DNA of 12,562 bases, from the NCBI GenBank assembly GCA_937885735.1, contig CALABN010000119.1, positions 1 through 12,562 on the forward strand, in the 5' to 3' direction. The notes beneath the pieces are model-generated. The model was not told the origin of the DNA. It did not search any database and was given only the letters and a program-made list of their open reading frames with translations. Shown piece after piece: positions 3,697-6,802 of the stretch. Both the position numbers and the translations under genes were made by a program. The stretch is from an uncultured Bacteroidota bacterium (GTDB lineage: Bacteria > Bacteroidota > Bacteroidia > Bacteroidales > SZUA-534). Numbering within the stretch: position 1 is the first letter of the stretch; every line of letters starts with the position of its first letter.

Positions 3697-3861
3697 ATGT
3701 CGCCGCTCTGCGGCTTCAGACATATTTAGCATCATTTTCTACCATTATTAGGCTGCTCTGCAGCCACTTGCCACAAACACTGATTTTTGTAAGCCGCAGA
3801 GCGGCGATATAATGGTAGATTACATTCGCCAATCAGAATTCAAGCCGCAGAGCGGCGACAC
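3697..3861. repeat. 165-bp palindromic (REP-like) element, copy 1
   Basis: This unit is bounded by 19-bp perfect inverted repeats, TGTCGCCGCTCTGCGGCTT (3698-3716) and its complement (3842-3860). It contains four short hairpins, each with a TCT or AGA loop: GCCGC/GCGGC within the left end, GGCTGC-TCT-GCAGCC at 3751-3765, GCCGC-AGA-GCGGC at 3791-3807 and again at the right end. A further 10-bp inverted pair, CTACCATTAT (3739-3748) and ATAATGGTAG (3809-3818), brackets the middle. It ends 5 bases before the transposase stop codon. The direct copy at 4363-4527 differs at 10 of 165 positions by my hand alignment. Confidence 0.92.
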
Positions 3862-3866
3862 TTAAG

Positions 3867-4328
3867 TCAATACCATTGGAACAAATAATCTTCACTATAC
3901 TTTATATCTAACTTTTGCAAAATACTCAAATACTCTTCTTTAAATGATTTAGATTTATGGTGTTCCTCTTGATTAATAATGTACTTAATGACTTTATCCC
4001 TATCTGATTTTGAATGAGAAAAAACACCTGCCCCTCTTTGCCATTCAAAATGTCCAGGAACAAAATGATTTTCATTTATCCATTTTGATGAATTAGACTT
4101 AATATCCTTAATGAGGTCCGAAATAGCAATGCTGACTTTATGCTCATAAAATATATGTATATGGTCATTATGTGCATTAATAGCCAATGGATAACAATCA
4201 CTCTTGTTCAATATGCCTCCAATATATTTACACAATTGCAAACGGAAAAAATCTGAAATCACATTCTCCCTATAAAGAACTGCAAATACAAGGTGAATAT
4301 TTATCTGAGAATAAACATTTGGATACAT
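3867..4328 (-). CDS. IS200-like/RAYT Y1 (HUH) transposase
   Basis: The 153-residue protein matches the Transposase_17/IS200-like fold: QINIHLVFAV at the N-terminus, the HUH metal/nickase motif NDHIHIF, SSKWIN, FEWQRGAGVFS, and the catalytic tyrosine in VIKYIINQEEHHK followed by SFKEEY. Both the HUH histidines and the tyrosine (about residue 116) are intact, so the enzyme could be active. Such proteins cut and join single-stranded DNA at hairpins during replication. I start at the ATG of MYPNVYSQ (4326-4328), because the -7 box at 4346-4353 is then 17 bases away. An ATG two codons earlier (4334) is possible. The gene is more AT-rich than nadB, consistent with a mobile origin. Whether it is a mobile IS or a domesticated RAYT cannot be told without genome-wide copy counts. 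Confidence 0.93.
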   Translation of the reverse strand: MYPNVYSQINIHLVFAVLYRENVISDFFRLQLCKYIGGILNKSDCYPLAINAHNDHIHIFYEHKVSIAISDLIKDIKSNSSKWINENHFVPGHFEWQRGAGVFSHSKSDRDKVIKYIINQEEHHKSKSFKEEYLSILQKLDIKYSEDYLFQWY

Positions 4329-4345
4329 ATACATTCGTGTTTTCC

Positions 4346-4353
4346 CAAAGTTA
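4346..4353 (-). promoter_or_regulatory. -7 box of the transposase gene
   Basis: The minus strand reads TAACTTTG, an exact TAnnTTTG, 17 bases before ATG 4328 and only 9 bases from the edge of repeat copy 2. The -33 region therefore lies inside the outer hairpin of that repeat. Confidence 0.55.
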
Positions 4354-4362
4354 GTGTTTTTT

Positions 4363-4527
4363 ATGTCGCCGCTCTGCGGCTTCAGACATATTTTACATCA
4401 TTTTCTACCATTATTAGGCTGCTCTGCAGCCACTTGCCACAAATACTGACTTTTGTAAGCCGCAGAGCGGCGATATAGTGGTAGATTGCATTTGCCAATA
4501 AAGATTCAAGCCGCAGAGCGGCGACAC
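4363..4527. repeat. 165-bp palindromic (REP-like) element, copy 2
   Basis: This is a direct copy of 3697-3861, the same length with 10 differences and no indels. The 19-bp terminal inverted repeats and all four TCT/AGA-loop hairpins are unchanged. The differences fall mostly in the spacers, the pattern expected if the palindromes are under constraint. The inner pair has one change (ATAGTGGTAG), which still pairs as G-U in single-stranded form. Confidence 0.92.
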
Positions 4528-4571: not shown

Positions 4572-4620
4572 TCTGCGGCTTCAGACATATTTTACATCAT
4601 TTTCTACTGCAGCCACTTGC
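4572..4620. repeat. Truncated third copy of the REP-like element
   Basis: From TCTGCGGCTTCAGACATATT the sequence follows copy 2 exactly for 35 bases to TTTTCTAC, skips 16 bases, then resumes with TGCAGCCACTTGC and stops matching. It lacks the left half of the first hairpin and all downstream hairpins. The skipped piece includes one arm of the central GGCTGC/GCAGCC palindrome, as expected of hairpin-mediated deletion. It shares the TTTTACAT variant of copy 2, so it derives from that copy or a close relative. Confidence 0.85.
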
Positions 4621-4673
4621 TTTGTTCACGAATGACATATCAAGAAAAAGTGTATTGTATGACCTTCGTCCCC

Positions 4674-5180
4674 CTACTTTTTTTTCGCAGGATTGGTAAT
4701 GAAATACGAAACATTGTCGGAATATTCATAGCCCATAAGTCCATACTTGACCGACGAGTACAATGCCGTTGGTCCTGTCACTGAATCATCTTCATAATAT
4801 AAAAATGTCTTGACAACTGTGTAATCTGTATTGTTGATGTTTATAGTATCCTTTTGTGCATCAGACACCCAACTCGACTCACAGACTGCAACCAACAAAC
4901 AATCATCGCTATATGGTGGACGAATACTCACTCTGACTGCGGTGTCGCCAACCTTGTCAAAGGTTGACTCCTTAAAGCAATATCTTTCATCATCAATATC
5001 ATATTGATATACAACCGATGAAACAACAAAAGCCTCTGTCTCCTTTGTCTGCCCTGAATAATAGTAGAACGTGTCGCCGTAATTGTATAAAGGTCTTTGG
5101 TTTGGAAGTACATCATAATTAGGGTCTTCCTTGCAAGAAAACAATGTCAATATCAATAATGGGATTATCAGCCTTTTCAT
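4674..5180 (-). CDS. Tandem-paralogue lipoprotein (fourth gene of the operon)
   Basis: This is a 168-residue lipoprotein: signal MKRLIIPLLILTLFSC with the acylated cysteine at residue 16, followed by KED, an acidic/charged start like the lipoprotein export signals reported in Bacteroidota. I do not recognise the family. It shares two blocks with its three neighbours: an N-terminal PLYNYGDTFYYYSGQT and a C-terminal YGLMGYEYSDNVSYFITNP. The middle is divergent. The frame extends 31 codons further upstream, but the start at 5178-5180 gives the signal peptide and overlaps the previous gene's TGA as ATGA, indicating translational coupling. It is probably a periplasmic or cell-surface beta-rich protein. 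The function is unknown. Confidence 0.85.
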   Translation of the reverse strand: MKRLIIPLLILTLFSCKEDPNYDVLPNQRPLYNYGDTFYYYSGQTKETEAFVVSSVVYQYDIDDERYCFKESTFDKVGDTAVRVSIRPPYSDDCLLVAVCESSWVSDAQKDTININNTDYTVVKTFLYYEDDSVTGPTALYSSVKYGLMGYEYSDNVSYFITNPAKKK

Positions 5181-5737
5181 TTCTTGTATTTCTTTTCGGT
5201 TAATGGATTGAGAATATTGTAAGTCACTGTATCTCCATACGAGAAACGCAACACCCCGCACTGATGCGAGCAAAAAATCTCTGTGGGATAGTATTGGTAC
5301 GATTTTTCAGGTCTCATAACATCGACATAATAACCTTCATCGTCTATGACAATATAACTGGCACTCACTGGATAATAATAAATACGGGGATAATGTGGCT
5401 TATAGAACTCAATATTCTCGATTCCGCCTTGGTTTTGACTGATGATAACAGAAACCGAATCGTCTATGCTATAGTATGTTGTATATCTATCACCCATATA
5501 ATGGTCGGTCTCTTCACAATTCAATCTATAGTCGACCAATTGGTATTTTTCTTTGACAACCCTGTCGACTGTCCACTCTTCAGTCTTGCCGTTCTGCGAG
5601 GAATAATAACTGAACACATCGCCTGCACTGCAGATTGGCTTTATGTTTTTTGGAATCTTGTAATAGACATCGTCATCGTCGGTATTGCACGACGAAAACG
5701 CTATCAAGATTGACATTATTGCAAGTATCTTTTTCAT
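5177..5737 (-). CDS. Tandem-paralogue lipoprotein (third gene of the operon)
   Basis: This is a 186-residue lipoprotein, the longest of the four. The signal MKKILAIMSILIAFSSC is followed by NTDDDD, which closely resembles the SDDDD-type surface export signal described for Bacteroides lipoproteins, so surface exposure is likely. The shared N-terminal block reads PICSAGDVFSYYSSQ and the C-terminal block reads CGVLRFSYGDTVTYNILNP. An ATG at 5746 would add three residues, but the MKK start is typical of such signals. The gene begins 11 bases after the preceding stop and its TGA overlaps the next start. I know of no function for the family. Confidence 0.86.
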   Translation of the reverse strand: MKKILAIMSILIAFSSCNTDDDDVYYKIPKNIKPICSAGDVFSYYSSQNGKTEEWTVDRVVKEKYQLVDYRLNCEETDHYMGDRYTTYYSIDDSVSVIISQNQGGIENIEFYKPHYPRIYYYPVSASYIVIDDEGYYVDVMRPEKSYQYYPTEIFCSHQCGVLRFSYGDTVTYNILNPLTEKKYKK

Positions 5738-5748
5738 AATCAGCATTG

Positions 5749-6261
5749 TTATTTGTCTACAATATATTCATCGTTGTCGGCAGTGACATATTTAAGGATG
5801 CCGTGTTTAGGCGAAAAATAGACAAGCATTGGCGCATTCAATGTATCTACAGCATTTTGTGACATCAAAAACACGTTCTTGGCCTTCTTTTTGTTAACCA
5901 CAACGTCGACCATATCAACTTTTTGCATATCGATTGTTTCGCCATTGATTTCAAGGCTCATTTCCCCAAAACCGCCATAAGATTCGTGAATAATGAATTT
6001 TACATTGGTTGATATGTTGACAAACAAGTAATCACCGCTTTCGTAGTATTTGGTACCCGACTCTTTGGTCGTTTCCGCCTCAACATTGATATTTTTCCGC
6101 ACAACATAAAGCGTGTCTTTCTGCCCTGAAGACTGCGAAGTGTAGTAATAGACATCGCCTGCATTATAATTTGGGAACTCTACGTTTGGCAGGTCGTTAT
6201 ATTTCTCACAACTGCAAAACGCAGTCAAGACCAGAAGTATAATTGGAAACAACTTTTTCAT
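5749..6261 (-). CDS. Tandem-paralogue lipoprotein (second gene of the operon)
   Basis: This 170-residue lipoprotein has the signal MKKLFPIILLVLTAFCSC and Cys18 as the likely acylation site, then EKYND. The N-terminal shared block reads PNYNAGDVYYYTSQ and continues KDTLYVV. Its C-terminal block is the most divergent of the four (HGILKYVTADNDEYIVDK, without the ITNP ending). Its signal-peptide codons share a run of 23 identical bases with those of the first gene (6206-6228 against 6747-6769), pointing to recent duplication or gene conversion at the 5' end. It lies 10 bases after the first gene. Function unknown. Confidence 0.86.
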   Translation of the reverse strand: MKKLFPIILLVLTAFCSCEKYNDLPNVEFPNYNAGDVYYYTSQSSGQKDTLYVVRKNINVEAETTKESGTKYYESGDYLFVNISTNVKFIIHESYGGFGEMSLEINGETIDMQKVDMVDVVVNKKKAKNVFLMSQNAVDTLNAPMLVYFSPKHGILKYVTADNDEYIVDK

Positions 6262-6271
6262 AGTGAATGTG

Positions 6272-6802
6272 CTATTTTATTGGGTTTGTAATAATATATG
6301 TAATTGAATCTGAATATGTATAGCCCATTATGCCGCAAGTGTATGAAATGAATATTGAAGTAGGAAGATTTTCGACATTTGTTTCATCAGGATAAATGAT
6401 ATCGTAATCATAATTCCTTCCGTCTATTTCTATCTGACCATTTTCTTGCATAAAACGAGAATAATATAACCTTGAACCATCAATTCTACAAGTATAGATC
6501 TTCATATTTCCCAACAAACTATAGGTATAATTAAATTTAAATGATTTCCTATCTGACATATTAGTTTTAACATAGCATTCATACGTCACATTCTCGTACT
6601 CTTCTTCATCGCAATGTTCAAAACCATGATACATATAATTAACATATAGCGTATCGGTCAAATGTGTCTGTTCTGAATAATAGTAGAAAGTGTCACCTTC
6701 GTCAAACCTCGGCTTCTCTGATTTTGGGAGATAAAATGTATTGTCATCACAACTGCAAAACGCAGTCAAAACGATAAGGAACAATGGAAATACCTTTTTC
6801 AT
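6272..6802 (-). CDS. Tandem-paralogue lipoprotein (first gene of the operon)
   Basis: This 176-residue lipoprotein leads the four-gene operon. The signal MKKVFPLFLIVLTAFCSC is followed by DDN, with Cys18 as the likely lipid attachment site. The shared blocks read PRFDEGDTFYYYSEQ with TDTLYV (N-terminal) and CGIMGYTYSDSITYIITNP (C-terminal). It has many Tyr and Asp residues and no transmembrane segment after the signal, suggesting a small beta-rich domain outside the inner membrane. The start is preceded by a good promoter (6826-6853). The family has no name that I recognise, and similarity to known enzymes is not visible. Confidence 0.86.
   Translation of the reverse strand: MKKVFPLFLIVLTAFCSCDDNTFYLPKSEKPRFDEGDTFYYYSEQTHLTDTLYVNYMYHGFEHCDEEEYENVTYECYVKTNMSDRKSFKFNYTYSLLGNMKIYTCRIDGSRLYYSRFMQENGQIEIDGRNYDYDIIYPDETNVENLPTSIFISYTCGIMGYTYSDSITYIITNPIK

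What the first reader, a model, noticed from the sequence alone, without database searches (positions are those of the whole stretch)
3697..4527. Y1 transposase between two intact 165-bp REP-like elements with 19-bp terminal inverted repeats
Each element carries four hairpins that all use a TCT/AGA loop, nested between perfect 19-bp inverted ends. The two copies are in direct orientation on either side of a transposase with intact HUH and Tyr residues. Differences (10 of 165) spare the palindromes. This looks like a Bacteroidota counterpart of the RAYT/REPIN systems described mainly in Proteobacteria, with a larger and more complex unit that could spread on its own using the transposase in trans.
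Basis: partly seen in the sequence, partly recalled or inferred. Interest (0 to 1): 0.72.

Follow-up and report, generated by a model that had tools for sequence, protein, structure and literature searches.

The report
Hairpin repeats paired with IS200-like transposase
A small DNA-cutting enzyme gene in a Bacteroidales bacterium sits between two copies of a hairpin-rich repeat, and its relatives show that this enzyme class, listed in a published survey as lacking such repeats, often has matching hairpin repeats of its own beside it.

Summary
In detail: two direct 165-bp units (10 differences, none in the hairpins), perfect 19-bp inverted ends and four small hairpins each, on either side of an intact Y1 transposase; a decayed third copy lies nearby. 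The interpretation needs one correction. The transposase is not a RAYT: it carries the signature of TnpA_Y1 subclass 1.2 (DHIH / WQ / Y---Q--HH), an IS200-like subclass that Quentin et al. 2018 list as having no REPs. Of 114 relatives tested, 49 have matching GC-rich hairpins on both sides of the gene (0 of 455 distant positions). Many near relatives share one design: tag ending RYC, 5-bp stem that covaries, triloop, closing T, often repeated on the same strand every ~51 bp, as in the window. One subtype occurs in 62 of 393 Bacteroidales genomes, up to 120 copies; in 60 stretches examined, 72 of 82 copies were intergenic and 58 stretches had no transposase hit. So this is a REPtron-like arrangement for subclass 1.2: a new variant of a known kind. 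Mobility in trans is inferred, not shown. The parent genome is not held, and the window's own unit was not found elsewhere.

The parts
3697..3861 (+). 165-bp composite hairpin unit A: two same-orientation hairpins (second degenerate) then two inverted ones
4363..4527 (+). 165-bp composite hairpin unit B, direct copy of A, 10 mismatches
3698..3716 (+). left 19-bp inverted end of unit A, TGTC tag plus first hairpin
3842..3860 (-). right 19-bp inverted end of unit A
4364..4382 (+). left 19-bp inverted end of unit B
4508..4526 (-). right 19-bp inverted end of unit B
3751..3765 (+). second hairpin of unit A, GGCTGC-TCT-GCAGCC; follows CTACCATTATTA (degenerate tag), about 50 bp after the first
   Evidence: spacing read from the sequence
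3793..3805 (-). third hairpin of unit A, read on minus: CTACCATTATATC-GCCGC-TCT-GCGGC-T
3844..3856 (-). fourth hairpin of unit A, 51 bp from the third, same orientation
4417..4431 (+). second hairpin of unit B
4459..4471 (-). third hairpin of unit B
4510..4522 (-). fourth hairpin of unit B
3867..4334 (-). Y1 (HUH) transposase, 155 aa, TnpA_Y1 subclass 1.2 signature (DHIH, WQ, YIINQEEHH)
4572..4633 (+). partial third copy of the unit: 35 identical bases, 16-bp deletion, then further matching bases

Best explanation
This is a REPtron-like locus of the IS200-like TnpA_Y1 subclass 1.2. The hairpins are REP-like elements: a tag ending RYC, a short GC-rich stem, a triloop and a closing T. They are the likely cognate single-strand substrates of the transposase encoded between them. 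Shown in the window: the anatomy and an open gene. Shown in relatives: a conserved tag with covarying stems, enrichment around the gene, matched hairpins on both sides, a ~51-bp register of same-orientation REPs, dispersed copies without the gene, REP type following transposase relatedness, and gain or loss of whole units between near-identical loci. Inferred: a TnpA dimer binds a REP folded on single-stranded DNA, uses the tag as guide (as IS608 does), nicks through Tyr118, and copies or moves REP units in trans, while the gene itself stays at low copy rather than spreading as an IS.
For: Signature Y---Q--HH in 65 of 70 tblastn hits and 98 of 105 distinct proteins. Motif-free test (same GC-rich 5-bp half-stem in hairpins on both sides within 300 bp): 30 of 59 genes of the first set, 13 of 39 and 6 of 16 in two later sets, 0 of 455 distant positions; first form 34 of 65 against 0 of 1300 shuffles and 0 of 138 distant positions. 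Generic REP density 2.99/kb within 100 bp of the gene, 0.017/kb at 2-4 kb; genes not used to derive the motif: 28 in 24.1 kb near, 10 in 454 kb far. Anchored on tag, loop and T without demanding pairing, 114 of 165 near sites pair fully with 33 different stems, against 14 of 239 far. Direct flank repeats of 50 bp or more in 42 of 98 loci, inverted in 28; control 4 and 1 of 300. Dispersal: 62 of 393 genomes, 3 reversed-pattern matches in all; 72 of 82 copies intergenic and 2 of 60 fetched stretches with a transposase hit. Shared stem and loop follow protein identity, 0 of 2000 permutations. Same-genome proteins average 50% identity in 25 pairs. Same-orientation neighbours 44-56 bp apart in 72 of 109 pairs and, among gene-free copies of G042, 29 of 36. 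Orthologous loci differ by one unit. None of 13 class 2 genes has the motif within 300 bp.
Against: The window's unit and stem are not shown to be dispersed: unit in 0 of 20 family genomes, its stem in 1 of 20 and there beside a transposase. The strict motif is not universal: 1 of 16 more distant subclass 1.2 genes, 11 of 39 held-out genes. REPs are also found far from the gene: 9 in 129 kb at 8-10 kb, and with one anchor 8 of 33 far sites pair fully. 2 of 13 class 2 genes pass the motif-free test, 4 of 13 with flank repeats added. 12 of the 62 genomes with the dispersed subtype have no transposase hit, one with 42 copies. In the richest genome 4 of 11 copies looked at fall inside ORFs. The excess of that subtype in transposase-positive genomes (p = 3.6e-5) is not corrected for kinship or genome size. 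Unit gain and loss in tandem arrays can also come from slippage or recombination. No activity, cleavage site or target site was shown.
Confidence: 0.72

Rival explanations
1. An ordinary IS200/IS605-type insertion sequence whose terminal hairpins happen to be duplicated; the repeats travel only with the gene.
Against: In relatives, same-genome copies average 50% protein identity over the 25 pairs I had, while Quentin et al. give 99.4% for true IS200; copies without the gene; tags on the two sides mostly face the gene, whereas IS200/IS605 ends lie on one strand (inferred from the guide rule).
Confidence: 0.1
2. A canonical RAYT/REPIN system (class 2 TnpA_REP) in Bacteroidota.
For: Gene flanked by inverted REPs; dispersed REPs and low gene copy number in relatives.
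Confidence: 0.05
3. Repeats independent of the transposase: passive palindromes (terminators, recombination or slippage products, or MITEs of another transposase) that accumulate around it.
For: Tandem arrays expand by whole units; the ACCCC subtype occurs in 12 of 393 genomes without a transposase hit.
Against: Steep decay with distance from this gene class, none of the motif at 13 class 2 genes, REP type follows transposase relatedness, conserved tag with covarying stem.
Confidence: 0.13

Closest known systems
TnpA_Y1 subclass 1.2 (Quentin et al. 2018, PMC6006769; abstract, sections 12, 15 part 1, 38 and passages seen)
   Same: HUH DHIH, WQ, Y---Q--HH, about 150 aa, Bacteroidetes, low copy, divergent within a genome
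   Different: Described there with no REPs and generally no IS200-like terminal structures; their automatic REP search demanded a GTAG/GTGG tag and a basal stem of 7-20 nt, which these 5-bp, RYC-tagged hairpins cannot pass
RAYT / TnpA_REP REPtrons (Nunvar et al. 2010, PMC2817692, passages seen; Corneloup et al. 2021, PMC8266576, abstract and passages seen)
   Same: Y1 gene flanked by inverted tagged hairpins; REPs elsewhere in the genome; co-evolution of REP and transposase
   Different: RAYTs have an NP(L/V)(R/K)xG motif by the Tyr and GTAG-type tags; here Q--HH, an RYC tag, 5-bp stem, triloop and ~51-bp same-orientation register
IS200/IS605 insertion sequences (IS608, ISDra2)
   Same: Closest fold; hairpins with a guide-like tag directly 5' of the stem
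   Different: In relatives the gene is not found as near-identical copies and the hairpins are multicopy without it
CGTC-tagged REPs (Di Nocera et al. 2013, PMC3733652; abstract, sections 6, 16 and passages seen)
   Same: Tag CGTC often changed to TGTC; reported in Bacteroidetes among five phyla
   Different: Stems 8-9 bp, loops mostly 4-5 nt, mostly CCA tails, no dedicated transposase found; here 5-bp stems, 3-nt loops, closing T, beside a transposase

Membership tests
TnpA_Y1 subclass 1.2 | DH[IV]H, WQ and Y---Q--HH motifs | tested here: met
   DHIH, WQ, YIINQEEHH
TnpA_Y1 subclass 1.2 | low copy, divergent copies within a genome | tested here: inconclusive
   met in relatives (25 pairs, mean 50%, maximum 90%); the window's genome is not held
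TnpA_Y1 subclass 1.2 | no REP or IS200-like structures next to the gene (a reported trait, not a sequence criterion) | tested here: not met
   window; 49 of 114 genes have matched hairpins on both sides; the published automatic search could not see them
RAYT / TnpA_REP (class 2) | Y---NP motif | tested here: not met
   YIINQEEHH
RAYT / TnpA_REP (class 2) | GT[AG]G-tagged REPs | tested here: not met
   window tags TGTC, ATATC, GTGTC; relatives end RYC in most
RAYT / TnpA_REP (class 2) | gene flanked by inverted REPs | tested here: met
   window; relatives: upstream 54 of 71 and downstream 41 of 61 REPs have the tag towards the gene
RAYT / TnpA_REP (class 2) | many dispersed REP copies in the genome | tested here: inconclusive
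   met in relatives for one subtype; parent genome not held
IS200 (subclass 1.1) insertion sequence | near-identical multiple copies of gene plus ends | tested here: inconclusive
   not seen in relatives; cannot be tested in the parent genome
CGTC REPs | 8-9 bp stem, 4-5 nt loop, CCA tail | tested here: not met

The most novel reading that the evidence does not exclude
Subclass 1.2 TnpA proteins run a third, separate REP system, distinct from GTAG/RAYT and CGTC. The basic mobile unit is a same-strand pair of tagged hairpins about 51 nt apart, which is the geometry of a miniature IS200 left and right end. The enzyme would excise and insert ~51-nt single-stranded circles, building tandem arrays and, by inversion, composite units such as the window's 165-bp element. 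It would be a living intermediate between IS200 transposition and domesticated REP systems.
Probability: 0.3. Interest if true: 0.78.

Novelty: new variant of a known kind. Interest (0 to 1): 0.62.

Why it matters
Subclass 1.2 was set apart as IS200-like proteins with no IS features, no REPs and no known role. Matched hairpins give this common group (transposase hits at E <= 0.001 in 227 of 393 Bacteroidales genomes; not all were checked for subclass) a candidate substrate and a testable function. They add a REP tag type outside GTAG and CGTC and place REP-type systems in class 1, next to true IS200, which bears on how REP systems arose from insertion sequences.

Tried and rejected
Searching the parent genome: none held. 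165-bp unit by DNA search in 7 genomes and 20 family genomes: nothing. Exact 23-mer from the unit's left part in viral contigs: nothing. Empty-site comparison: nadB and its neighbour are conserved in G234 but the DNA upstream of nadB is not alignable beyond the first bases, so no empty site could be read. A first hairpin scan with stems of 7 bp or more found nothing in 46 of 70 hits, the window included; a 5-bp scan that asks for a match on both sides replaced it. A strict order-wide pattern with a full tag found 48 sites in 13 of 393 genomes and no reversed-control site; at least two of the 48 are not fully paired. My first class labels for control genes were wrong for several; redone. CGTC REPs as the same family: rejected on stem, loop and tail. 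Canonical RAYT: rejected on the Tyr motif. No tree was built. Boundaries of dispersed units are not uniform: sharp in G205, shorter in G101, longer in G340. Stem sharing with transposase identity is not monotonic: 16% of pairs below 40% identity, 5% at 45-50%, 45% at 65-95%. Literature searches for REPs with subclass 1.2 or in Bacteroidales found none beyond the papers named; they cover open-licence PMC only, so a paper elsewhere is possible.

Rows dropped: genes with under 150 bp of flank (5 of 64 and 2 of 41), under 200 bp (7 of 105); genes were made distinct by exact protein only, so a few near-identical orthologues (such as L028 and L029) count separately. Six of 22 subclass 1.2 genes were already known and left out of the third set.

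Full report
1. What is there. The window is a 12,562-bp contig with no held genome. The nearest genome found among 295 Bacteroidales genomes, G234, has DUF2851 72% and NadB 93% identical in protein. Between nadB and a run of four small ORFs lies a 155-aa Y1 transposase on the minus strand (3867-4334). On each side is a 165-bp unit in the same orientation (3697-3861, 4363-4527). They differ at 10 positions, all outside the hairpins. A decayed third copy lies at 4572-4633. Each unit has four small hairpins. On the plus strand the first is tagged TGTC; the second (GGCTGC stem) follows CTACCATTATTA about 50 bp later; the third and fourth read on the minus strand, 51 bp apart, with tags ATATC and GTGTC. 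A unit is therefore a same-orientation pair facing an inverted same-orientation pair, and the 19-bp inverted ends are the two outer REPs. Unit A folds as one long single-strand structure, z = -9.9.

3. Hairpins around relatives. I asked, without assuming any sequence, whether hairpins on both sides of the gene share a GC-rich 5-bp half-stem. They do in 30 of 59 genes of the first set, 13 of 39 of a second and 6 of 16 of a third, together 49 of 114; at positions away from the gene, 0 of 455. Counting flank repeats of 50 bp or more as well, 69 of 114 qualify. Direct flank repeats, the window's arrangement, occur in 42 of 98 loci and inverted ones in 28 of 98; control positions gave 4 and 1 of 300. 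Class 2 genes of the same genomes gave 2 of 13 in the motif-free test and 4 of 13 with flank repeats added; class 2 is known to have REPs of its own.

4. One design. Hairpins oriented by their tag give T[GAT][TC]C, five paired bases, a triloop mostly TAC, TTC or TCT, five paired bases, T. A box like the window's CTACCA lies just 5' of 138 of 280 such REPs, most often in the second of a pair, 44 of 54. Density falls from 2.99 per kb within 100 bp of the gene to 0.017 per kb at 2-4 kb and 0 at 4-8 kb, with 9 more at 8-10 kb. Genes not used to derive it: 28 in 24.1 kb near, 10 in 454 kb far. Anchoring on tag, loop and closing T but not on pairing, 114 of 165 near sites pair fully with 33 different stems, against 14 of 239 far; two narrower anchors gave 42 of 58 near against 8 of 33 far (one stem), and 9 of 14 against 0 of 45. 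The stem covaries. Tags mostly face the gene: upstream 54 of 71, downstream 41 of 61. Adjacent same-orientation copies lie 44-56 bp apart in 72 of 109 pairs, as in the window. The strict motif is not universal: 1 of 16 more distant subclass 1.2 genes, 0 of 13 class 2 genes and 0 of 2 other class 1 genes.

5. Dispersal. The pattern YCACCCCTNCGGGGTT, one subtype, matches in 62 of 393 genomes, 520 sites by my tally, with 120, 50, 42 and 35 copies in the richest four; the reversed control gave 3 in all. In G042, which has 120, the 100 sites listed lie on 53 contigs, and 29 of 36 same-strand neighbours are 44-56 bp apart, 24 of them exactly 52. I looked at 60 fetched stretches: 2 have a transposase hit and 72 of 82 copies are intergenic; in G042 it is 7 of 11. 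For loci chosen by the strict generic pattern, 23 of 30, several overlapping, have no transposase hit. In G205 the dispersed unit is a same-orientation pair whose conservation stops at the tag and just after the second hairpin; in G101 it is shorter and in G340 longer. Genomes with the subtype more often have the transposase (50 of 62 against 177 of 331, p = 3.6e-5), without correction for kinship or genome size; 12 have none.

6. Co-evolution and turnover. Over 51 loci, shared stems and shared loops follow transposase identity (Mantel r 0.225 and 0.344, 0 of 2000 permutations each), though the trend is not monotonic for stems. Near-identical loci differ by whole units: L028 and L029 by one of 67 bp, L021 and L035 by one of 75 bp. 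Slippage or recombination could also do this.

7. Why it was missed. Quentin et al. state that subclass 1.2 has no REPs and generally no IS200-like structures. Their automatic search required GTAG or GTGG and a basal stem of 7-20 nt. A 5-bp stem with an RYC tag cannot pass it. My searches of open-licence papers found no report linking REPs to this subclass.

8. How it probably works. By analogy with IS608 and TnpA_REP (guide sequence 5' of the palindrome, single-strand and strand-specific cleavage; passages of PMC8266576), the tag would be the guide and the hairpin the recognition element. The gene with its flanking units would supply the enzyme; REP units would be multiplied in trans. The ~51-bp same-strand pair looks like a miniature left and right end, which leads to the bolder hypothesis in the section on the most novel reading. 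None of these steps was shown here.

9. Limits. No parent genome; the window's own unit was not found elsewhere and its stem is rare in its family (1 of 20 genomes, beside a transposase). Absence of a transposase hit in such an assembly is weak evidence.

Noticed in passing
window 4674-6802 (-): Four consecutive small ORFs (199, 189, 170, 176 aa), several with lipoprotein-like starts by eye, with stretches of DNA similarity to one another (repeat families D2, D4, D8, D12) and no Pfam or NCBIfam match; looks like a tandem paralogous family.
   Followed up: no
L023, L024, L036 upstream of the transposase: The upstream repeat follows at least the C-terminal part (YINNQAEHH...) of a second subclass 1.2 transposase, so gene plus unit seems duplicated in tandem; G219:C1 (1393776, 1394623) and G200:C1 (3871607, 3872401) also have Y1 hits about 0.8 kb apart.
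   Followed up: partly
G321: 42 copies of the ACCCC REP subtype in a 2.1-Mb genome without any transposase hit: lost enzyme, assembly gap, or a divergent enzyme.
   Followed up: partly
L159 (G222:C13): Array of same-orientation GCCCC REPs at a regular 46-47 bp period beside the transposase.
   Followed up: partly
L012, L020, L030, L038, L039: More distant subclass 1.2 genes carry longer hairpins (7-10 bp stems, for example CCCCGTGC or CTTGGGGC) on both sides, without the RYC-tagged 5-bp form for most of them.
   Followed up: no
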